A stretch of DNA of 64,000 bases from Exobasidium rhododendri (Eukaryota; Basidiomycota; Exobasidiomycetes; Exobasidiales; Exobasidiaceae), in assembly GCA_026210745.1 (NCBI GenBank), contig CP110630.1, forward strand, positions 3,596,001 to 3,660,000, written 5' to 3'. The notes below the pieces were generated by a model. That model was given only the letters and a program-made list of their open reading frames with translations. It did not search any database and was not told the origin of the DNA. Made by a program: the position numbers and the translations under genes. This document shows, in pieces, positions 1,437 to 43,733 of the stretch (position 1 is the first letter of the stretch; every line of letters starts with the position of its first letter).

Positions 1437-3570
1437 ATGTCTTCACCGGTACCTTCAGCTTCGGCTGAGGCCCGTATCGAGGAGTTATATAGACAAGATG
1501 TCAATGTGATCCCTCCAAAAGCGGCTAAACGAACAGGCGTGCCTAAATTGCAGTTACCCATGCGTGAGTGACGACGATCTTCTCCGAAATCCCTAAGAGC
1601 TTTCATGCCAATTGACGATTTGGCATGCTATCAGAGTTATCCGCTTCATCATCAGCGTCCTCTTTGTCGTCATCTAATGCCTATTCTCGACCGCCTCCCC
1701 CTAAGCTGAGTCTACAGGCCAGATCGATACCTTCGCACGGCCACGCACCAACACTTCAATTGTCGATTCCAAATAACAACACATTCAATAATCTACATCT
1801 AGAGGCAGATGAAGGCTACGAGGGCTCAGCAGGCACCAGCTCTGTGGCTTTTAAAGCAGATGCCTCTGGTTGGAATGGAAATGTATCGCACCAGAGTATC
1901 TACCCGAATACAGTGCCTTACGGGGGAAGTGGCCAAGCTGCCGATCCATTGGCATTGACCAACGACCTACGAAGAGCGATAGGTGGCCTTTCTGTCGACG
2001 ACAAGAGAAGTGCAGTGGAGGAGGATGTGAGCAGCTCTGGTGAGGTGGGGCCTACCTCAAAATATAGCAGGCTTTACACGCCCTCCTCGTCCAGTACGAC
2101 GGGGGCGGCTAAATCTGGTCTTGAAGTGGGCACCGACACTTTGGTCCTAGGCCCTTCTCCGAGCCAGGAACTAGAGGAAGAATCAGAGCTACAGCTAAAG
2201 GGCAATTTGGAGGTGTTAAACAGGCTGGGAGAAGGTGCGAGCGGAGAAGTGAGGAGTGCGAGGTATCGACCGACTGGCTTGATCATGGCAATGAAGGTGA
2301 GGAAGAACGAGTCATATTCGAATCTATCTACAACGAACACTGGCTCAACAGAATTTTTCCTTCTCTCTTGTAGACGATCAGTACCTCACCAAATCCAGCC
2401 ATTCATCGACAGATCTTGCGAGAGTTGGCTTTCAACAGGTCTTGCCACTCGGACTACATTGTTCGCTACTACGGCGCCTTTCTCGAGAGTGAGGACACCA
2501 GTATCGTCATTTGCATGGAACAGTGTGAAGCAGGCAGTCTTGACGGTATCTACAAGCGCTGCAAATCCAGAAACGGACGAATGGGCGAGAAAATCCTGGC
2601 CAAGATCGCAGAAAGCGGCTTGAAGGGACTGGGCTACCTTCATGAGCGCAAGATCATCCACAGAGGTGCGTTGTGGGTAGAACGTGCACTACTACGTCTT
2701 TCAGATTGATAATCTGAGCTTTACTCTTGAACAGATATCAAGCCTTCCAACATCCTCGTCACACGACAGGGTCAGATCAAGCTGTGCGATTTTGGGGTGT
2801 CGGGTGAGCTGATCAATTCAATGGCCGGCACATTCACTGGCACCAGCTACTACATGGCACCAGAGCGCATTCGTGGTCTCCCATACACCATCACCTCTGA
2901 TGTTTGGTCACTCGGTTTGACGATCTTGGAATTGGCATCGAATCGTTTTCCCTTTCCACCAGAAGGAGAACCAGCCTTGGGCCCGATCGATCTGCTGTCG
3001 TACATAGTAACGATGAAAGTGCCTGAACTTCAAGACGATGCCATTTCGGGGATAAAGTGGACAAAGGCATTCAAGGATTTCCTGGAGAATTGCCTAGAGA
3101 AGGACGGCACAAAGAGGTACGGTCCGATCAAGATGCTCAACCATCCATTCATCAAGAAGTCAATCACTCGCATACCACAACCGAACGTTGCCAAATTTGT
3201 GGCTGACGTTTGGGGTTGGGACTATCCAGAAGAAGCAGAGGAAGAGCAGACGTCACTCCCCTCCAAGCATACGAGAAAGCAGCCGAGCAATGAGATACCG
3301 ATCCTGGTCAACGCAGACGTTCCTGGACTCGGAAGAGTAGCGAGCGTTCGAAAAGCGCCGTCACCACTTCGTCAACAAGGCGGGGGTGCCGGAGATGCTG
3401 CTCGAATAGCGACACTTACGTCTGCCAACATGGCCACTGGACAAGATTCAAACACTCCAATTCCGTCACACAGCCTCCACGTAGATGGCAGGACAGCGAA
3501 CGAAAGAGCCCTTGCCAAGAAGAGGGAAGCCGACGTCGGTCTCGTTGGCAGTCCAGTGGAGGAAATCTAG
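1437..3570 (+). CDS. Ste7/Fuz7-type MAP kinase kinase
   Basis: Exons 1437..1563, 1635..2296, 2374..2665 and 2735..3570 join in phase to a protein of about 638 aa. A Ser/Pro/Thr-rich N-terminal region precedes the kinase domain. Visible motifs are the glycine loop (LGEGASGEVRSARY), the beta-3 lysine (MAMK), the catalytic loop HRDIKPSNILV built across the last intron, DFG in CDFGVSGELINSMAG, the MAPKK activation segment with Ser/Thr phospho-acceptors (SMAGTFTGTSYYMAPERI), and a C-terminal tail. This is the MAPK kinase family of the fungal pheromone and filamentation cascade (Ste7, Fuz7), acting between a MAPKKK and a MAPK. The exact orthology among Ste7, Pbs2 and Mkk types rests on my recognition of the activation loop and was not tested. 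Confidence 0.88.
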
Positions 3571-3819
3571 AGCACTCTCCCATCTCTGTATCTCTACAGC
3601 TAGAATTCCATCGAAGACCCTCTCCTCTTTTTTTCCCAACCCCCACGACCCCCAATAGCACTGCCTTCCTCAATCAATGTATCACCGCCCCGACCTCACC
3701 CACAATACACACTCAGCGAAGAGAATTTCCCAATCCATGAGCTATCAGTAGCTTGATGTAATCGTCGTGCAATTAAAATGGACGAATGATGGGGAAAACA
3801 TGATACAATGTCAGACAGT

Positions 3820-4655
3820 CTACTTCTGAGCAGCAATTCGAGCTTGTAGCTTGAGGTTGTCTTCAAGAGGTCCGTGATTGTTGATGTATTGTAGGTAGCA
3901 CTGGCGATTGATAAAGGAAAAAAGGTCAGTATGCTGAACATCTGGTTGCATGACATTCCTTCTCGTGCAAAGCACTCACTCCATCACGCAAGATTCTGTT
4001 GTCGGCCTTTGCAGAAGCGTATTCTCCCTTTTGCATGTTTGTGAATCCCCACTTCTTACTGATGATGATCTTTTGTCGACCGGCAAACTTGTAACGAGAT
4101 CGTCGGATAGCTTCCAAGACGACTGGTCGATTGCTCTCACGAGATCGGACAGACAACAAGATCTGTCCAATGTCGACTCGAGCCACAGTGTCGTAAGGCT
4201 TTCCGTAAGCACCTCGCATACCAGTTTGCAATCTATCGGCACCTGCACAAGACAACATCTTGTTGATTCGCACGACGTGGAAGGGGTGGACACGGATCCG
4301 CATGTGGAAAGAGTCCTTTCCAGCAGTCTTTGTAATGTACTTGTTGCAACTAATTCGTGCAGCTTCCAAAGCTTCCGAGGTGATCTGTTGATGTTCGTCG
4401 CATACCAAATGAGCACAGAAGGGAAATTCGTCTACGTTTGCCTTCTTTCGTCCCAAGTCAAAGATACGGATCTTGGGGTCGGGTACTGGAAGAGCGAGAA
4501 AGCGTTTTGGTGGCACCAGTAGAGGTCAGTGTTGATTCCTCTTAAGACACAGAGATCGTCAGGATTATCCACTACTCACCACCTCTGTTGTATCTGCTCT
4601 TGGGGAACGGCTTGTTCTTGCAGTACCTGTAGCAACGAGCTGGTCTTCTACCCAT
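3820..4655 (-). CDS. RPL10: 60S ribosomal protein L10 (uL16)
   Basis: Exons complement(3820..3900, 3980..4485, 4580..4655) give 220 aa. The start [20 protein letters not shown] is diagnostic of eukaryotic L10/QM, and the body ([52 protein letters not shown]) is highly conserved. The last exon gives [20 protein letters not shown]. The protein is added late to the 60S subunit and completes the peptidyl-transferase and P-site region. Both introns have GTGAGT donors. The gene converges with the MAPKK gene. Confidence 0.97.
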
Positions 4656-33782: not shown

Positions 33783-35240
33783 ATGCTCATCCGAGGCGCC
33801 TCTCTCCTCGTTGCGACTCTACTGGCGCTTGCTACCACTGGCAATGCATTCCCTAACATGGCCAAGCTCATGGAACCTCGTACAATGCAAGAAATCAAAT
33901 CCAAATTCAATGCAGCAAATCAAACCGTCCTAACGTCCTCGTTCAGCAGCATGTTTGCCAAAGTCACCGAGCTGAAGGGGAAGAGCTCGGATGCCGCTTC
34001 ATGCAAAGACACCAAATTGACAGACCTTAACACCGAGTCGATTTACAAGACCTACAACTTGTACAGGACAACAACGACGACTTCCTCATCGTCATCGTCG
34101 GGCAGTGGAGGAAACAACAGTTCAACCTACGGCTACTCTCGACACAGCGCCTACGCCAACGATAGCAGAGCCGACACCTCTATTTCAAGTGGCGGCTCAT
34201 CGCAACGATGCCCTTCGACTGACTCTACAACGAGCAGCAGCGGTGATGGCATCCTCGGTGGTGTGTTGGATGCTGCTAAGACCGTCGTCGGCTCTGTGCT
34301 CGGAACCAGTGGCGGCGAAGACGCTGATCATCCTTGGGTAGCTCCTGTAGCTGGTGACAAGAGAGGACCTTGCCCAGGTCTGAATGTGATTGCCAACCAC
34401 GGTTACATTCCTCACAATGGTATCGTCAGTCCACTGGAGCTGGTCATTGGAACGTACGAAGGGCTTCACCTCAGTCCTGATCTAGCTGGATTCTTGGCTG
34501 CCTTGACCATGGTCGGTATGGGCGACCTCACAACGATGACGTTCTCCATCGGAAGTAAAGACGGTCTGGGAGCAGGCCTGAATCATCACGGAATACTGGA
34601 GGGAGACGCAAGTGTAACCCGCAATGATCACTACTACGGGAACAGCTGGGACGCACAATTGGATCTGGTGGAGCAGTTCATCAACGAGACCAACACATAC
34701 GGCAACGGCAACGTCGACGTCACTTCCCTTGGTCAATCCCGCTATCGTGCTTGGGAGCACAGTCGTGAGAACAACCCTTACTTTGACTTCAATCCCTGGC
34801 GAATGATTGTCGCCTATGCAGAATCTGGCTTCGTTCACGAAGTCCTACGAGGAAGTTTCCAGAAGTTTGATGAAGCCATGATCCGATCTTGGTTCGTTGA
34901 AGAAAGATTCCCACCTTGTTGGCTACCAAGAGCCGTACCAATGACCATCCCTGAAGTCTTGGCATGGGCAAGCGTAGTCTTTGTGACCAAGCCAACGGTA
35001 CCAGGCTGGAGTATCGGCAAGAAAGGCGCCTTTGTTCCCTTACCAACATCGGATGGTGCTTATCAAGAGATTAGCGCCTTTTTGAATCCTTCCACAACTG
35101 GTGCAACTGTCTCGACCATCTTTTGCGCTGCAGCAAATGCCGCTTCAGGCTTTTTCCCCAGCCAGATCACAAATCTTCTCGGGTCTGCAGGTCTGCCAAG
35201 CGTCGGTTCGCCTATCTCCTGCCCAGGCTGGACGCAGTAG
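33783..35240 (+). CDS. Secreted heme-thiolate peroxidase (chloroperoxidase/unspecific peroxygenase family)
   Basis: A single exon of 485 aa. Signal peptide residues about 1-22 (LLVATLLALATTGNA). The heme-thiolate motif is GPCPGLNVIANHG with Cys at about residue 197 as proximal ligand. It is followed by YIPHNGIVSPLELVIGTYEG and the acid-base motif EGDASVTRNDHYYG (Glu about 273, Asp about 275). The family uses hydrogen peroxide to oxygenate or halogenate organic substrates outside the cell. The PCP motif lies much further from the N-terminus than in typical members, because about 170 residues including a Ser/Thr/Gly-rich stretch (residues about 95-155) come first. The substrate is unknown. Confidence 0.9.
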   Translation: MLIRGASLLVATLLALATTGNAFPNMAKLMEPRTMQEIKSKFNAANQTVLTSSFSSMFAKVTELKGKSSDAASCKDTKLTDLNTESIYKTYNLYRTTTTTSSSSSSGSGGNNSSTYGYSRHSAYANDSRADTSISSGGSSQRCPSTDSTTSSSGDGILGGVLDAAKTVVGSVLGTSGGEDADHPWVAPVAGDKRGPCPGLNVIANHGYIPHNGIVSPLELVIGTYEGLHLSPDLAGFLAALTMVGMGDLTTMTFSIGSKDGLGAGLNHHGILEGDASVTRNDHYYGNSWDAQLDLVEQFINETNTYGNGNVDVTSLGQSRYRAWEHSRENNPYFDFNPWRMIVAYAESGFVHEVLRGSFQKFDEAMIRSWFVEERFPPCWLPRAVPMTIPEVLAWASVVFVTKPTVPGWSIGKKGAFVPLPTSDGAYQEISAFLNPSTTGATVSTIFCAAANAASGFFPSQITNLLGSAGLPSVGSPISCPGWTQ

Positions 35241-35484: not shown

Positions 35485-35922
35485 ATGGCACAGGAGTGGC
35501 TAGATTGGCAAGACGTCTACACCTCTTCCGACCTGGTGCTTGCTGTCGAACCAAAGTATGCAGCATCAATCTTCTTCGAGGGACAGACTGGCTATCGAGA
35601 GGGAGAGCGCTTCTCTGTGCTGCAGCCAACGTGAGTTGGTAGCGGGTTAGAATGATGCGTCATGCTTAGCTTGAATTGTTTCATGAACGTCTCATTCTCG
35701 GAACAAAGATTTCTGTCAGCGTAGCAGCCACTGATATCGCAGTGATATTTTTCCATTCACGATCCACAAAAGAGCGTATCTCGACGGTGTCAAGTAGGAG
35801 AGGGGGAGCGTATCTGCGACGACCGCCAAGAGATCGACACGCGAGACTATACTTCCGAAAGTGGGTCGACCAACTTCTTCCGCTTCTCTGGGCTTGCGAT
35901 TTGCATCCAGGGCGCGCCCAGT
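35485..35922 (+). pseudogene. Small gene probably interrupted by the transposon
   Basis: ATG at 35485 opens a 49-codon frame (start MAQEWLDWQDVYTSSDLVLA) that ends at a good donor, GTGAGT at 35633. Further right, bases about 35806-35920 are open with a protein-like reading (RICDDRQEIDTRDYTSESGS, then FFRFSGLAICIQG) that reaches the left end of the transposon. Reading on past the right end of the element gives PSILNDSDC and a stop. I could not fix the internal splicing, so the gene model is tentative. No family is recognised. Confidence 0.35.
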
Positions 35923-36065
35923 AGGGGGTTTCACGCGTATTCACGATTGAGGCGAATCGTGTTTGAAACCCGATTCGAGTGAATCACGATTCAACTTTGC
36001 CACGTGTTGGTGGTTTTTGGCTGTAAAAAGTGAATCGTGATTCAGTCCAATCACGATTGGCTCGA
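35923..36065. repeat. Left terminal and subterminal repeats of the transposon
   Basis: After the 16-bp terminal repeat, the next about 130 bp hold several copies of a short motif on both strands: ATTCACGATT near 35938, GAATCACGATTC at 35981-35992, its inverse GAATCGTGATTC at 36032-36043, and AATCACGATT near 36049. The right end has related sequence (CGCGATTGGCTGTAAATCACG, within 40655-40676). Repeated subterminal motifs commonly bind transposase or its Myb-like partner, which is inference here. Confidence 0.7.
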
Positions 36066-36127
36066 ATCAGCTTCAAGAGCCTGTTTGGCACGAAACGCGA
36101 TTCACGTCTTCCTTATTCATCTCCTCT

Positions 36128-36135
36128 ATAAAAAT
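36128..36135 (+). promoter_or_regulatory. TATA-like box for the transposon Myb gene
   Basis: TATAAAAA lies just upstream of the ATG at 36145. The spacing to the ATG is very short (about 10 bp), so either the leader is minimal or a further methionine is used. Confidence 0.35.
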
Positions 36136-36144
36136 TCCTATAAC

Positions 36145-37209
36145 ATGATTCCACCTCACAGTCCACGCCGCAGCGCACATGTTTGGCAAGATGCAGAAGT
36201 AGACTCTTTGGTCAATTGTTTATATACCTCACCTGCCTTGCAAGCTGCTCTCCTCCCAGGACGTAATCCAGAAGGTACACGTATTGGCTCAACAAGCAAG
36301 GCCACACTACTTAGACGTGTATACAGAGAGGTTTGGCCCAACACTTCATCAGCTTATCCAGACCGCATTCGATCCAAGATTACTTCACTTCAAAAGGTTT
36401 ACAAGCAGGAGAGGGATAGACTTGACCAGACAGGACAAGGGTTGCGTCTTGAAGAGCTTACTGCAGGAACAAAGCTGAGAACGCAACGAGAGCATCTTTT
36501 GCTTAAAGTGCCCTGGTGGGAGACATGGCACAAGATGATGGTTGACCGACAAGATGTTGGACCAACAAGCCTCATAACAAGTGCTGGCTATGGAGGAGAT
36601 AGTGACAATGAGATTGACGGCATTGTTGCAAGCAGCAGCAACAGCCAAACACATGCGCCGGCTCTGCAGCATGCACCACCTTTGTCTACCTATGTGGCTG
36701 ATGTAGTGGATGACAGTGACAGCGATACCAACTTGCAGAATGGTCGAGGTCTTTCTGGTCTGGAAAGCTCTATAAATCTTTCTCAGCATGATCCATTAGC
36801 TGAGAGGCTGCAATACAATCATTCATCTTGGCTAGACAACGAGGAGGACATTGGTGATGAGGATGACCAAATGGAAGCCTCAAGAAGTCCCAGCGTGACA
36901 AGAGTGTCTACCAAAAGAAAGACAAGTGGACGCACGCCACGGAAAGATATGTCAGCGCAGGAAATGATGTCAAACACCGTGCATCAAGCCATGGATGGAA
37001 CATACAAACACCAAGCAGAAGTTGAGCGTGAGATCACCAAGAGGCGTGAACTTGAATTGGATTTTGAGAGAAAGAAAATTGAACTTGCACAAGAGGAGAG
37101 ACGTATAGAAAGAGAAGACTTGGCAAGGGAAAGACAAAACATGATGCAAGTTCTATTTGATCTAGCACGAGGGGCCCAACAACAGCACTTTTCTGCACCA
37201 AATCCTTGA
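36145..37209 (+). CDS. Myb/SANT-like DNA-binding protein of the transposon
   Basis: Uninterrupted frame of 354 aa from ATG at 36145. Residues about 10-110 form a trihelix/Myb-SANT-like domain: HVWQDAEVDSLVNCLYTSPA, then RVYREVWPNT, RIRSKITSLQKVYKQERDRL and a tryptophan pair in KVPWWETWHKMM. A Ser/Asp-rich middle follows, then a long charged C-terminal coiled coil (HQAEVEREITKRRELELDFE). PIF/Harbinger elements typically encode such a second protein, which binds element ends and helps bring the transposase to DNA. It converges with the transposase gene, about 15 bp between its stop and the end of the possible transposase extension. Confidence 0.8.
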   Translation: MIPPHSPRRSAHVWQDAEVDSLVNCLYTSPALQAALLPGRNPEGTRIGSTSKATLLRRVYREVWPNTSSAYPDRIRSKITSLQKVYKQERDRLDQTGQGLRLEELTAGTKLRTQREHLLLKVPWWETWHKMMVDRQDVGPTSLITSAGYGGDSDNEIDGIVASSSNSQTHAPALQHAPPLSTYVADVVDDSDSDTNLQNGRGLSGLESSINLSQHDPLAERLQYNHSSWLDNEEDIGDEDDQMEASRSPSVTRVSTKRKTSGRTPRKDMSAQEMMSNTVHQAMDGTYKHQAEVEREITKRRELELDFERKKIELAQEERRIEREDLARERQNMMQVLFDLARGAQQQHFSAPNP

Positions 37210-37223
37210 TCTCAAGATTGTCT

Positions 37224-37502
37224 TTAGCAAGCACGCTCTTTCCTGCGTGAAGACTTGTCAGTGTCTACAAAATCCCAATCATGTGCTTCGAAGAGCGCCA
37301 AGTGCATCTCCTCTCGAAGATCGAGTGCTCTCTGCTTTCTGAGATGATCAAAACTGCTTGATCCTCTCTGTGCCTTCTCAAGATTAGACTGTTCTTCATA
37401 TGCCTGCTGAGCTTGTTGTCGATGCAGGAATAGATCTTTGTCAATAAGAGGGGCAGCGCAAACAGTAGCTGTTTCTAAATCAGCAGCCGCACCTAGACCC
37501 CT
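37224..37502 (-). pseudogene. Possible out-of-frame C-terminal extension of the transposase
   Basis: On the minus strand, 92 codons are open between stops, with a protein-like acidic and Gln-rich reading (LIDKDLFLHRQQAQQAYEEQ, LREEMHLALFEAHDWDF) ending at TAA 37224-37226. It begins right at the GGGG run (37498-37501) where the transposase frame ends in FEGV-stop. One extra G would fuse the two. It may be a lost C-terminus, a sequence error or chance. Confidence 0.4.
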
Positions 37503-38710
37503 TCAAAAAGACTTCCATCCATGTTGTCTGTATTAAGCCATGTCTCAATATTAGCTATTTTATCATGTGCCGATGCAATTGTATGTGCCACAATGCATGC
37601 CATAACCACTTTCGAAAAGTTCATCTCGTCTTGTTCTCTGTATAAATTTCCTCGGTATCCTGTCAATACCTGGAAGCGGTTCTTGAGATAAGCAATTCCA
37701 TGTTCTGCTCTACTACGGATACGAGACTGCTGATAGTTGAATCTTGCAAGGTCTTTGACTCCAAAAGCCTTACTATTTGTATAAGGAGCAAGTGTGAAAG
37801 CGCTATGTCCATATCCCCCATCTGTCCAGATAAATTCACCTTCATCTAGATAGAGACGTGGCTTACGCAACACCTTGCTCCCTGCAGCCCACACCCTTGA
37901 GTCCTGTGCAGAACCTGGAAAGCCAATGACACATTCAATGATACGTAGTGAATGCGGCAACATTACTAATTGAACATTCATTGAGTAGTTGCGTTTGTAG
38001 TTGTAGTACTCGCGGTGATGTTGGCCAGGTTTGAATGCAAGGTTGATGTGTGTACCATCTACCACTGCCCAGCCCTTCTCCCACTCATCAACACCACATC
38101 TGTTGGCCACCCATTTCTTGGCTACTGCTCGCTCCGACTCACTTGCCCACAAGATTGTAGAGGCTGCAAGTTCATTAAGCCCCTCAACAGCCATATTTGT
38201 CCAATTGTGGACGGAACCCTCTGAACAGCCGCATGCAGAAGCAACATCACGAACACTTCCGCCATTTCCTGCCCTGCCTAGCCTGTGCATTGCCACGGCA
38301 AGCCGCTTGTGTAATGTACTGTTGCTACACCTAAGAAAAGGCGTAGTCTTCTTCAGACGTGCAGCAAGGTCATCAAATGCTGCTGGTGTCATGCGCATGA
38401 ATCCTCTGTAGCAATGGTGGTTATGTACTGCAAAGTATCCAACTTTGTCAATCATTCTTTCTGTCTTTGGGACAGTGATACGTTTGCGGAAGTAGCGCTT
38501 TGCCTGTAGGTCATCAATAGTCTGGAGAATAGCTTGTAAAATCTCAACCATTACTTTTTTTTGATACGAAGAAGGCCATGACGTCCCGCCATTGTACTTA
38601 ACGGCAATCTTGTTTTGCAAAAGATATTGAAGCTGTGAAGAAGTGACAAAGTATGACACAAAGCTGTATGCTGCTGATAGCTGTTGTTGCCGGTAACTGT
38701 GGCGCACCAT
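37493..38710 (-). CDS. DDE transposase, PIF/Harbinger (DDE_Tnp_4) type
   Basis: A single frame of 405 aa from ATG at 38710. The helix-turn-helix part (LAVAMHRLGRAGNGGSVRDV, then ACGCSEGSVHNWTNMAV) precedes the RNase H-like core. Catalytic residues are visible: Asp about 218 in AVVDGTHINL, Asp about 297 in FIWTDGGYGHS, and Glu about 336 in SRAEHGIAYLKNRF, together with the conserved GFPGSAQDSRVW. The enzyme cuts and pastes the element. With the triad intact and no internal stop, it looks functional apart from doubt over its C-terminus. Confidence 0.92.
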   Translation of the reverse strand: MVRHSYRQQQLSAAYSFVSYFVTSSQLQYLLQNKIAVKYNGGTSWPSSYQKKVMVEILQAILQTIDDLQAKRYFRKRITVPKTERMIDKVGYFAVHNHHCYRGFMRMTPAAFDDLAARLKKTTPFLRCSNSTLHKRLAVAMHRLGRAGNGGSVRDVASACGCSEGSVHNWTNMAVEGLNELAASTILWASESERAVAKKWVANRCGVDEWEKGWAVVDGTHINLAFKPGQHHREYYNYKRNYSMNVQLVMLPHSLRIIECVIGFPGSAQDSRVWAAGSKVLRKPRLYLDEGEFIWTDGGYGHSAFTLAPYTNSKAFGVKDLARFNYQQSRIRSRAEHGIAYLKNRFQVLTGYRGNLYREQDEMNFSKVVMACIVAHTIASAHDKIANIETWLNTDNMDGSLFEGV

Positions 38711-39082
38711 ACTCCTGTGTGTGGATACAAAGAGAGTGCAACAGAGCTAGAATATATTTCATGTCATTCAATTTTGTCCTACAAAAGATAAAATCCTTAC
38801 AGGCATCCGAATGGATGAAATGAAAAATTCTCTGCCACACGCTTTTTTGGAACAAATCTCTTACAGGCATCCTAGTTATAAACGCTTACTGTGGGTCACT
38901 CTGCCATGCTAGAGATATGTTTGATATCATTTTAAAAAGTTCAGAGGTAGCATATTTTGTGGTTTGAAGCACTTAAGAAAATAATGAAAAGTGTCTTCTA
39001 CACTGTTGCTCGAACATTTGTGTTTTTGCTCGGATCTTTAGACGCAAGAAGAATCTAGCAAAGCGCATTCATCATAATACTA

Positions 39083-40348
39083 TTAGTTCATGTCTTCTTC
39101 ATTCTCAGTTACAACTTCGTTATCATCAGAATCAACATCATCATCTTTGTCGCTGTAGTTGCTTTCATCAATCTGGTCATCTTCATATTGGTAGAGGAAG
39201 TCCCATTCCAAATCACCCTTTGTGTTGATGTCACAGAAGTACTTCCAACGATCTTCACAAGCATTGTACCACGCTGTTTTTTCCTTTGCTGTTGAAGCCG
39301 ACAATGTCTTGAAGCCAAGATGGACAAATCGGAAGAGGCTTGTGTGTGTGAAACTAACAATTGAACCTCGACTATGACCTTTCACCATTGGATCATTGGA
39401 GTGTGCAACAAGAGCAGACGGAAAGAAGCAGATGTCGCCTGCTCTCAATTGTATGCAAGCAAAGGCATCATGAAGGAGGAGTGAGCCTGAGTTCTGGACT
39501 GTTGGATCAAAGTCACCAAAGGGTGTGACGGCACAGAGACTAGTGACCAAGTCACTGGTGTCGCGGTGAGGCTTGCAGACAGTGTAATTTCCTTCCTTGT
39601 TGATAGCCACAGAAGACTGGATGCCCCAAAGAAAGCCGCCACACGGCTTGATGTTTTCAAATTTGCTGTGAGAAGCCACCTTGTAGTAGTCTCTTGCATG
39701 GTGAGGAAAACATCTGTGAAACAATGTTGCAGTACGTTGCTTGAGACGTTTAATTGCTGGCTCTGTGAGGAAATCTTCCCAATCGTTGTAATGTTTCCAA
39801 AATTGACTGTTGTAATACAAGTCATATTCCCCCTCGTTGTTCCTTGGTGTTGCTTGGCCTGGTCCTTCCAATTTGGCATGAGCAGTCGTGAAGTTGCCAC
39901 GGCTTTCTTCCACAGAATGAAAGATATTGTCAGAAAGCTTGCTGGTGGCAGTTGCTATTGCCTTTGCTTCAGTCGTGTCATTTCCTTTCCAGCAGACGGA
40001 AGCAAAGTGTACGTTGTTTTGGTCAACAAGGTGAGTGATGATATGACTGTCGCCCTTGCAAAATACTTGAAGGTAATCATCTGCCTCTTCTTGACGGTAT
40101 GCTTGAACTTGAGTGTTTGTCAATGGTCGTCCTCTCAAGTAACCCTTTTCATAAAGCTTGGTGAAGTCGAAGTTGCATTCGACTACATCAATGGCATCTG
40201 ATCCTGCTTCAGAATTAAACTCTCGCATGTCTCTTCTGAAGCTTCTGAATCCATCACGGATACTTAGACTTGTCATTGCTCTGTGATAGTCGGCCCAGTC
40301 TTCATGAAAGTTGTTGATGGTGAGCGTTGATGATGTGTAAAATGGCAT
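39083..40348 (-). CDS. 2-oxoglutarate/Fe(II) dioxygenase carried by the transposon, probable TET/JBP type
   Basis: A single frame of 421 aa from ATG at 40348. The double-stranded beta-helix signature is visible: HRD at about residues 261-263 (first His and Asp iron ligands, in KPHRDTSDLVTSLCAV), a strand pair GSLLLHDAFACIQLRAGDIC, the distal His about 316 in FFPSALVAHSND, and Arg about 327 in KGHSRGSIVSFTH for 2-oxoglutarate. The layout (GDICFF...H...R-G-S) resembles fungal TET/JBP proteins, which oxidise 5-methylcytosine or thymine in DNA. The tail is highly acidic (DKDDDVDSDDNEVV). Lying between the inverted repeats, it is element cargo. A protein hydroxylase or AlkB-like role is the alternative. 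Confidence 0.7.
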   Translation of the reverse strand: MPFYTSSTLTINNFHEDWADYHRAMTSLSIRDGFRSFRRDMREFNSEAGSDAIDVVECNFDFTKLYEKGYLRGRPLTNTQVQAYRQEEADDYLQVFCKGDSHIITHLVDQNNVHFASVCWKGNDTTEAKAIATATSKLSDNIFHSVEESRGNFTTAHAKLEGPGQATPRNNEGEYDLYYNSQFWKHYNDWEDFLTEPAIKRLKQRTATLFHRCFPHHARDYYKVASHSKFENIKPCGGFLWGIQSSVAINKEGNYTVCKPHRDTSDLVTSLCAVTPFGDFDPTVQNSGSLLLHDAFACIQLRAGDICFFPSALVAHSNDPMVKGHSRGSIVSFTHTSLFRFVHLGFKTLSASTAKEKTAWYNACEDRWKYFCDINTKGDLEWDFLYQYEDDQIDESNYSDKDDDVDSDDNEVVTENEEDMN

Positions 40349-40688
40349 GCGTGCTGCTGCGCAAAGAGAAAAGTCCTATGGTCAGTAAAAAAAAAAATGG
40401 CATGACCTCCCATATTCCTGGCACCTCCCATCGGCCAGCCAATAGTTGCCCTTTACCTCTTGGGCCAGCTTTAGGGAGCCAAGGTGGCAATGGGACCCGG
40501 CAGCTGTCTCCCAGACGCCCCCTCCACCCTTCCCAAGCTCTCTAGCTAACCCAAAAGGCTCAGGACAACAGTCAGCCAGCTTTTACCACTTACCAGGTGT
40601 GGTGATGGTTGTACAAAGTTAAAAAGTGAGATCGGTGGGGTGTTCAAATTTAAACGCGATTGGCTGTAAATCACGTTTCGGGTTGCAA

Positions 40689-40704
40689 ACGCGTGAAACC
40701 CCCT
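40689..40704. repeat. Right terminal inverted repeat of the transposon
   Basis: ACGCGTGAAACCCCCT is the exact inverse of the left end at 35923-35938 and is followed by AGT, the target duplication. Between the dioxygenase start and this end lie about 340 bp of non-coding DNA with an A-run near 40387-40398. Confidence 0.85.
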
Positions 40705-41065
40705 AGTATATTAAATGACTCCGATTGCTGACAAGAGACAGAACGAAAAAGGAAGCAGAAAACACTGTGTAAAGAATGAAAGGCAAAATGATTAGATTAT
40801 ATCGAAACAATTATACAGTGCAGTGCCGTACGCTTTGGAAGAGCTTGTTTGTTGTGTGGGGGACTCCTGGAGCAGTCTAGTTCGAGGAAAAGAAGGGGGA
40901 AAGGAAGGGGGCTGCTTATAATCTACCCTTGAATTCCTTACTCATCTTGCTGATCATCATCTTCTTCCTTTTGATCTGCTTGTCTTTGTCCCCGATTCTT
41001 CCCCTGCACCTTTCTTTTCTACCGCACGCACTCCCGCTCAAAAGAAAAAGGTACCGTAAGCCACG
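40705..41065. other. Right flank of the transposon, non-coding
   Basis: This is the rest of the interrupted locus and the promoter of the next gene. If joined to the left flank, the first codons here would end the interrupted frame. A T/C-rich stretch at about 40955-41035 precedes the next start. No other feature was recognised. Confidence 0.4.
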
Positions 41066-42947: not shown

Positions 42948-43733
42948 ATGACTAACATCCTAGTCATTAATCCGAACTCGAGCGAGTCCATCACGGAAGG
43001 GCTACGAACTTCTCTAGACCTAATCAAACCAGCAGGTGCAACACTCACGTACTTTACAGGTTCGAAAGCATTTCAGTGCCCACCTTCCATCAATGGAGCG
43101 CTTAGCAGCGTAGAATCAGCCATTGGTGTCTTTCGCGAACTGAGTCAAGGCGACGCCTCATCGTCGTCAGCCGCCGGCAACAAAGATGATGGGCACGAAA
43201 GAGCTGGGGAATCTTTGCTACAGACTGCAGACGCCATCCTAATTTGCTGCTTTTCCGATCACTCGCTCGCGGAGATCATACGACAGGAATATCCCATGAA
43301 ACCTTGCATGCACATCCTAGAAAGCGCTGTGAATTTTGCTCTATCACGGACTTCAAAGCCGTTCGGTATCATAACGACCGGCAGTGACATGATTCCAGAC
43401 ATAGATAGGGGAGTGCTTACGTATCTGGGTGGGCTAAGTAATCGTTATGCTGGTACGTTGGCTACCAATCTTGGAGTCCTGGAGCTGCGCGAGGAGAAGA
43501 GCCGAGAAAAGGTGGAGAGCATCTTGCGAGAAAAGATTGTAGAATTGGGTAGGATGGGAGTAGGCGCCATCATCCTCGGTTGCGCTGGTTTTGCAGGAAA
43601 GGAGACCTTTATCCGCGCATGCTTGACTGAGTCAATCGGAAGGAAAGCTGCCAGTCACATCGCCCTGGTTGACGGGGCAAAGGCGGGCATCCATCTTTTG
43701 GCAGGTCTATCTCGTTGCGAACTCAACACATGA
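42948..43733 (+). CDS. Asp/Glu/hydantoin racemase family protein, Dcg1-like
   Basis: A single exon of 261 aa. It opens with the family start MTNILVINPNSSESITEGLR. The two cysteine sites expected for two-base racemases are present (DAILICCFSDHSLAEI and IILGCAGFAGKETF), with FGIITTGSDMIPDI between. Yeast Dcg1 is a relative linked to allantoin and nitrogen catabolism by regulation only. The substrate here is unknown. A Ser/Ala insert (residues about 69-88) sits between the first strands. Confidence 0.85.
   Translation: MTNILVINPNSSESITEGLRTSLDLIKPAGATLTYFTGSKAFQCPPSINGALSSVESAIGVFRELSQGDASSSSAAGNKDDGHERAGESLLQTADAILICCFSDHSLAEIIRQEYPMKPCMHILESAVNFALSRTSKPFGIITTGSDMIPDIDRGVLTYLGGLSNRYAGTLATNLGVLELREEKSREKVESILREKIVELGRMGVGAIILGCAGFAGKETFIRACLTESIGRKAASHIALVDGAKAGIHLLAGLSRCELNT

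What the first reader, a model, noticed from the sequence alone, without database searches (positions are those of the whole stretch)
39083..40348. A cut-and-paste transposon carries a TET/JBP-like 2OG-Fe(II) dioxygenase
Seen: a 421-aa frame with HxD (about 261-263), distal His (about 316) and Arg (about 327), lying inside matched inverted repeats with a DDE transposase and a Myb-like protein. Known: basidiomycete genomes carry expanded TET/JBP genes linked to a different transposon class (Kyakuja-Dileera-Zisupton). Inference: here the enzyme is cargo of a PIF/Harbinger-type element and may oxidise 5-methylcytosine at its own ends or donor sites to escape silencing. That pairing of enzyme and element type may be undescribed.
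Basis: partly seen in the sequence, partly recalled or inferred. Interest (0 to 1): 0.92.

Follow-up and report, generated by a model that had tools for sequence, protein, structure and literature searches.

The report
Harbinger transposon carrying TET-like dioxygenase gene
A recently mobile cut-and-paste transposon in a plant-gall fungus carries, as an original part, an enzyme gene that resembles the enzymes which remove methyl marks from DNA, so it may protect itself from being silenced; similar pairings are already known in other fungi, and the enzyme's target is not proven here.

Summary
In a 17.65-Mb genome matching Exobasidium rhododendri CBS101457, the 421-aa frame lies in a 4,782-bp element (35923-40704) with a DDE_Tnp_4 transposase, a Myb/SANT-like protein, A-GGGGGTTTCACGCG inverted ends and a 3-bp AGT duplication. 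Three copies on two contigs carry the gene without one base substitution between them, so it moved as a unit. Five close copies lack it; they form two groups with different breakpoints, both keeping the gene's first codons, so they look like deletions from a gene-bearing form. A decayed relic keeps the gene but lost transposase and Myb. It shows excess synonymous change (P 0.009) and strong CpG-to-TpG decay; the genome encodes a DNMT5-type methylase.

The TET/JBP label is plausible, not proven. No Pfam TET/JBP profile matches. Naegleria Tet is the best-scoring solved oxygenase in four of five searches with hits, but weakly (E 0.03-0.3); in the fifth, PiuC hydroxylase ties. The pairing is not new as a kind: Kojima 2025 describes TET-bearing Harbingers (PHISTA) in rusts. 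This one differs: 3-bp ANT duplications instead of TA, a Myb/SANT-like partner, a divergent enzyme, and Ustilaginomycotina.

The parts
35920..35922 (.). Left copy of the 3-bp target duplication (AGT)
   Evidence: Equals 40705-40707. ANT is duplicated in 8 of 8 copies with two exact ends and in both divergent copies; the relic reads ATC / ATT
35923..35937 (+). Left terminal inverted repeat (A-GGGGG-TTTCACGCG)
36145..37209 (+). Myb/SANT-like second protein of the element (354 aa)
   Evidence: PF13837 E 0.0033, 18.2 bits against a cut-off of 27; 8 close copies (99-100% identity, this one included) plus 2 at 40% in the genome
37493..38710 (-). DDE transposase of PIF/Harbinger type (405 aa in the window; longer open frame in other copies)
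   Evidence: PF13359 DDE_Tnp_4 E 2.9e-21; copies; one-base difference near its 3' end
39083..40348 (-). 2OG-Fe(II) dioxygenase, TET-like (421 aa): H261, D263, H316, R327
   Evidence: second 100% copy at C1:6451951
38726..40333 (.). Union of the two segments missing from short copies: S1/S4 lack 38726-40308, S2/S3/S5 lack 38748-40333
   Evidence: Alignment gaps 2804-4386 and 2826-4411, converted to window coordinates by hand; exact to a few bases because of short matches at the junctions
40690..40704 (-). Right terminal inverted repeat
40705..40707 (.). Right copy of the 3-bp target duplication (AGT)

Best explanation
This is a recently active PIF/Harbinger-type DNA transposon with a Myb/SANT-like partner and a 2OG-Fe(II) dioxygenase as a standing part of the element, not a chance passenger. 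SHOWN: the element borders, the duplications, several copies, co-mobility of the gene, loss of the gene in two different ways, and decay of an old copy mainly at CpG. INFERRED: the dioxygenase is a divergent TET-like enzyme that oxidises 5-methylcytosine (or another modified base) on element DNA, reducing silencing and CpG-to-TpG mutation caused by the host's DNMT5-type CpG methylation. It can probably serve sister copies in trans, because gene-less copies have also spread recently. Confidence: element and cargo status about 0.95; TET-like enzyme acting on DNA about 0.5; anti-silencing role about 0.4. The single figure below is for the whole statement.
For: Three long copies at C1:3631924, C1:6451596 and C3:194190 show 0 base substitutions in about 4,780 aligned bases, only single-base length differences, and each has its own ANT duplication. 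The two gene-less groups have different breakpoints on both sides and keep the first codons of the dioxygenase (S1/S4 about 13, S2/S3/S5 about 5), so at least one deletion, and most simply two, arose from gene-bearing elements. The relic C1:413687-415835 keeps the gene (94% DNA identity over 1,646 bases) but lacks Myb and transposase. Its dioxygenase differs by 63 substitutions, 27 synonymous against 18.8 expected under matched mutation classes, P 0.0094. Transitions away from C or G in the relic: 36 of 120 CpG positions against 36 of 789 other C/G positions (Fisher P 1.5e-15); TCG 18 of 36. CpG observed/expected is 0.57 in the element and 0.82 in the rest of the window. The genome encodes a 2,287-codon frame with C5-methylase, SNF2 and helicase domains, the DNMT5 layout (layout described in PMC7862722, passages). 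Naegleria Tet is the top PDB hit for profile A2 (E 0.028), for the 53%-identical relative P0002 alone (0.066) and for domain profile A5 (0.064), with HxD and distal His in register (alignment seen).
Against: No match to Pfam TET/JBP profiles. The best Pfam hit is the general 2OG-FeII_Oxy_3, E 0.057, below cut-off. The window protein alone hits nothing in the PDB. In profile A4 a non-oxygenase (E 0.13) scores above Tet (0.30), and in profile A3 PiuC hydroxylase (E 0.0039) equals Tet (0.0054). Five of eight closely related copies live without the gene, and one identical set of three gene-less copies spread recently, so the gene is dispensable to a single copy. Gene-bearing copies do not retain significantly more CpG than gene-less ones: 10 against 4 for S1 and 11 against 3 for S2 in shared sequence (sign tests worked by hand, not in a call, give about 0.18 and 0.06). 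One of the three long copies has a one-base deletion in the dioxygenase, possibly an assembly error in a C run. The synonymous-excess test is one of five uncorrected tests.
Confidence: 0.45

Rival explanations
1. The dioxygenase is a protein hydroxylase (PKHD/PiuC-like or prolyl-hydroxylase-like) that modifies the transposase, the Myb partner or a chromatin protein, not DNA.
For: Best Pfam match is the general 2OG-FeII_Oxy_3. Profile A3, the catalytic domain with the subtelomeric relatives included, hits PiuC at E 0.0039, and the subtelomeric relative alone hits NCBIfam PRK05467-type Fe2+-dependent dioxygenases, E 0.00048 but 19.7 bits against a cut-off of 143.
Against: The PiuC signal appears only in the domain profile that includes the 25-28%-identical subtelomeric rows; the full-length profile with those rows (A2) and the queries of the transposon-type proteins alone (A4, A5, P0002) hit Naegleria Tet and no other oxygenase at E up to 10.
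Confidence: 0.3
2. Chance passenger: a host gene caught by the element that does nothing for it and is now being lost.
For: 5 of 8 close copies and both divergent copies lack it. The gene-less S2/S3/S5 set is identical at three sites, so it spreads without the gene.
Against: Excess of synonymous change between relic and intact gene (P 0.0094); three copies without a substitution; a 53%-identical homologue from an unnamed source keeps the four catalytic residues, with 70% identity in the catalytic domain. S2/S3/S5 also carry a stop in their Myb gene, so they are probably parasites of fuller copies and show only that the gene is not needed in cis.
Confidence: 0.15
3. The TET-like enzyme is real but its target is another modified base (6mA, or thymine as in JBP), or it makes a lasting mark rather than removing one.
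For: Kojima 2025 notes that CcTET acts on 6mA and that other activities of transposon TETs cannot be excluded.
Against: The mutation scar of this family is at CpG, which points to 5mC as the pressure.
Confidence: 0.15

Closest known systems
TET-positive Harbinger families of rusts, PHISTA (Kojima 2025, PMC12730594)
   Same: Harbinger-type DDE transposon with a TET-type 2OG dioxygenase inside complete ends, in a basidiomycete plant parasite.
   Different: PHISTA makes TA duplications and its third protein has no Myb/SANT domain. Here the duplication is ANT, the partner is Myb/SANT-like, the host is Ustilaginomycotina, and the enzyme matches no TET/JBP Pfam profile.
Kyakuja/Zisupton/Dileera elements with TET/JBP genes (Agaricomycetes, rusts)
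   Same: Same strategy: a transposon carrying a TET/JBP-like dioxygenase.
   Different: Other transposase class. The two CcTET residues for 6mA recognition reported in that paper (Gly331 at H+5, Asp337 at H+11) read D266 and C272 here by simple counting, without an alignment to CcTET.
Nuwa / canonical PIF-Harbinger elements
   Same: Two element proteins (transposase plus Myb/SANT) and 3-bp duplications, as described in PMC12730594.
   Different: Those are described with two proteins; this one has a third, the dioxygenase. Placement in the transposase tree was not tested.
Naegleria Tet-like dioxygenase (PDB 4lt5, 5cg8)
   Same: Best solved-structure match over the catalytic core.
   Different: Weak E-values; about 80 residues aligned; not known to me as transposon cargo (recalled).

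Membership tests
PIF/Harbinger transposon | DDE_Tnp_4-type transposase | tested here: met
   PF13359 E 2.9e-21, 76.2 bits against 24.8
PIF/Harbinger transposon | Second protein with Myb/SANT domain | tested here: inconclusive
   PF13837 E 0.0033 but below the curated cut-off; the 40%-identical protein of a divergent copy gives no Pfam hit at 0.01
PIF/Harbinger transposon | Inverted ends and 3-bp target duplication | tested here: met
   ANT duplicated in 8 of 8 copies with both exact ends and in 2 of 2 divergent copies; the relic has ATC / ATT
PHISTA (TET-positive Harbinger of rusts) | TA dinucleotide duplication | tested here: not met
   TA flanks the GGGGG core at both ends, but the next base also matches in 10 of 10 copies while varying between copies (A, C or G), which a 3-bp ANT duplication explains and a plain TA does not
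PHISTA (TET-positive Harbinger of rusts) | Third protein without Myb/SANT domain | tested here: inconclusive
   A weak Myb/SANT match is present here
PHISTA (TET-positive Harbinger of rusts) | Transposase groups with the PHISTA clade | not tested
   No Repbase sequences on hand
TET/JBP dioxygenase | HxD...H facial triad and downstream Arg | tested here: met
   H261, D263, H316, R327 invariant in A2; shared with other 2OG oxygenases, so not diagnostic
TET/JBP dioxygenase | Match to a TET/JBP family profile | tested here: not met
   No PF12851 or PF20515 match in Pfam scans; the own-genome scans found none but are uninformative because no control genome rang
TET/JBP dioxygenase | Nearest solved structure is a TET | tested here: inconclusive
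   Best-scoring oxygenase but E 0.028-0.3; PiuC ties; no hit (window protein) or (subtelomeric relative)
TET/JBP dioxygenase | TET fold with its own nucleic-acid-binding loops | not testable with these tools
   Structure prediction switched off
TET/JBP dioxygenase | Oxidises 5mC or thymine in DNA | not testable with these tools
   Needs an assay
PE-type transposon TET (Kojima) | HxE instead of HxD | tested here: not met
   HRD at 261-263; definition

The most novel reading that the evidence does not exclude
A fourth, so far unnamed lineage of transposon-borne TET-like enzymes, captured by a Myb/SANT-type Harbinger in Ustilaginomycotina independently of the rust PHISTA elements. It shares ancestry with a dioxygenase multiplied at the chromosome ends of the same fungus. 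It oxidises 5mC at element copies in trans, so that one gene-bearing copy shields a family of gene-less derivatives from DNMT5-driven silencing and CpG decay.
Probability: 0.25. Interest if true: 0.7.

Novelty: new variant of a known kind. Interest (0 to 1): 0.5.

Why it matters
If the enzyme acts on methylated DNA, a small genome in few pieces (17.65 Mb in 4 contigs) holds one transposon family with gene-bearing copies, two kinds of gene-less derivatives, a decayed relic and a DNMT5-type methylase. That is a compact natural comparison for the open question of whether transposon-borne TET-like enzymes really protect their carriers, and whether they do so in cis or in trans. It would also extend transposon-borne TET-like enzymes to a fourth fungal subphylum and to the Myb/SANT type of Harbinger.

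Tried and rejected
Rejected: that the gene-less copies show a chance passenger (the five close ones carry 5' remnants of the gene; the two divergent copies show no remnant, so for them this is open). Rejected: a TA duplication (a further variable base matches in every copy). Not accepted: a CpG-retention advantage of gene-bearing copies. The pooled 15 against 5 (P 0.041) counts two gene-less lineages against one and is biased; per lineage it is 10 against 4 and 11 against 3.

Led nowhere: the window protein alone and the subtelomeric relative against the PDB: no hit. Viral-contig scans and the genome-contig scan gave no relatives. Phage searches with P0002 and the subtelomeric relative gave only weak hits at 22-42% identity, E 0.007 or worse. 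PHROGs gave phrog_12057 for the window protein (E 0.014), phrog_24024 for P0002 (E 0.00042) and phrog_61, a 2OG-Fe(II) oxygenase family, for the subtelomeric relative (E 5e-6); none was followed. Three protein searches found only P0001 (the relic's frame), P0002 and P0003 (the subtelomeric gene itself). Selection tests on the other genes: transposase L2 against S1 P 0.008, against S2 P 0.47; Myb P 0.18 and 0.47; no correction for five tests.

Kojima 2025 was read as outline and abstract, sections 4, 5, 14, 21, 23 and part 1 of 24, plus passages; its supplements and figures were not read. PMC7862722 and PMC13010171: passages only. The other papers: search listings only. The statement that I found this element nowhere in print rests on those listings, in an open-access library that lacks most subscription journals; the genome paper itself (Li et al. 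2023, seen only as a reference) was not read.

Full report
WHAT IS THERE. The window lies at C1:3596001-3660000 of a 17,647,348-base genome in four contigs. The nearest named protein is from Exobasidium rhododendri CBS101457 on a contig of the same length, 7,127,044. The element spans 35923-40704. From left to right it has an inverted end, a Myb/SANT-like gene (36145-37209, +), a DDE_Tnp_4 transposase (37493-38710, -), the dioxygenase (39083-40348, -) and the other inverted end. The dioxygenase reads inward from the right end, upstream of the transposase and in the same direction.

COPIES. Exact end cores: 18 in the genome, 0 in the reversed control. Sixteen pair into three long copies (about 4.78 kb: window, C1:6451596, C3:194190) and five short copies (about 3.19 kb: C1:55109, C1:3447582, C1:5401119, C1:7104202, C2:2119857); the other two are one end each of two divergent copies (C2:3762627, C3:686041). 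Searches with the end regions found 9 left and 11 right ends, adding one relic at C1:413687-415835. So 4 of 11 recognised copies hold the dioxygenase: three long copies and the relic. The tool states that counts of repeats are lower bounds.

BORDERS. Reading A-GGGGG...CCCCC-T as the element, the flanking three bases are duplicated in 8 of 8 copies with two exact ends: AAT four times, ACT three times, AGT once. Both divergent copies also show it, AGT and AAT; the relic reads ATC on the left and ATT on the right. Because the middle base varies between copies yet matches within each of the ten, a plain TA duplication does not explain the borders.

THE GENE MOVES WITH THE ELEMENT. The long copies differ by 0 substitutions in about 4,780 bases, with one-base length differences only: column 1575 in the window copy and one short copy; column 3907, inside the dioxygenase, in the C3 copy. 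They sit at three sites on two contigs.

THE GENE-LESS COPIES ARE DERIVED. S1/S4 lack alignment columns 2804-4386; S2/S3/S5 lack 2826-4411. Each group keeps a stretch that the other lost (22 columns on one side, 25 on the other), and both keep the start of the dioxygenase (about 13 and 5 codons). So at least one, and most simply both, are deletions from a gene-bearing element. S2/S3/S5 are identical to each other and carry a stop in the Myb gene, so they were probably moved in trans by other copies. For the two divergent copies, which have no remnant of the gene, nothing follows about the ancestral state.

SELECTION AND METHYLATION SCARS. Between the relic and an intact long copy the dioxygenase has 63 substitutions: 27 synonymous, 35 non-synonymous, 1 stop. 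Placing the same mutation classes at random gives 18.8 synonymous, P 0.0094 (the first of five tests, uncorrected, indels ignored). With the long copy as reference, C-to-T change in the relic (both strands) is 36 of 120 in CpG, against 15 of 344 CpA, 6 of 183 CpC and 14 of 258 CpT; TCG is highest at 18 of 36 (which leaves out a few sites beside gaps that one search counts). The reverse direction shows no such bias, 4 of 56 CpG. TCG hypermutation is what Kojima's discussion reports for Pucciniomycotina repeats. A DNMT5-layout methylase (C5-methylase, SNF2, helicase) is at C1:5107844 in a 2,287-codon frame, and a second C5-methylase in several frames, probably split by introns, is at C2:1910300-1911813. 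Methylation of this element was not measured.

WHAT THE ENZYME IS. Pfam gives only the general 2OG-FeII_Oxy_3, below cut-off. Against the PDB: window protein alone, none; subtelomeric relative, none; P0002, Naegleria Tet E 0.066; A2, Naegleria Tet 0.028; A4, an unrelated protein 0.13 then Tet 0.30; A5, Tet 0.064 and nothing else; A3, PiuC 0.0039 and Tet 0.0054. This is a TET-leaning but unproven assignment. Kojima accepted PE-type TETs with HHpred E-values of 1.4 and 19 plus structural similarity, so the weak values do not exclude membership; but I could not run the structural step. I therefore call it TET-like and do not file it as a TET/JBP member.

KNOWN OR NEW. Kojima 2025 already describes TET-positive Harbinger elements, named PHISTA, in six rust species, with TA duplications and no Myb/SANT protein, and lists Pucciniomycotina, Agaricomycotina and Pezizomycotina as the carrier lineages. 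Words beginning Exobasid- and Ustilagin- do not occur in its main text. The present element is a different Harbinger type in a fourth subphylum with a divergent enzyme: a new variant of a known kind.

HOW IT MOST LIKELY WORKS (inference). Host CpG methylation by the DNMT5-type enzyme silences and mutates copies. The cargo enzyme oxidises the mark on element DNA, keeping promoters or ends usable. Loss of the gene in single copies is tolerated because the product acts in trans. The CpG comparison between gene-bearing and gene-less copies leans this way (10 against 4, and 11 against 3) but is not significant per lineage.

Noticed in passing
G000 C1:2929-4113, C1:7119129-7120304, C2:6602-7786, C3:6594-7769 (L007, L008): A distant relative of the transposon dioxygenase (25-28% overall, 36-38% in the core) sits within 8 kb of four contig ends, 99-100% alike between ends, each time beside a frame of about 480-490 aa (87-100% alike) of no Pfam family. 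Possibly a subtelomeric mobile unit with its own 2OG oxygenase.
   Followed up: partly
L050, L051 (C2:3762627, C3:686041): Two divergent Harbinger copies (transposase 59%, Myb 40% identical) share their last 315 bases at 97% with the window family, the match stopping in an A run: an apparent exchange of element ends.
   Followed up: partly
G000 C1:3447582, C1:5401119, C2:2119857: Three identical gene-less copies carry a stop in the Myb gene yet spread recently, suggesting mobilisation in trans.
   Followed up: partly
L052/L062 (C1:5107844) and L053 (C2:1910300): Two cytosine C5-methylases in this genome, one with DNMT5 layout.
   Followed up: partly
window 33783-35240 and 42948-43733: Nearby frames match Peroxidase_2 and Asp/Glu/hydantoin racemase; the element lies between them.
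   Followed up: no
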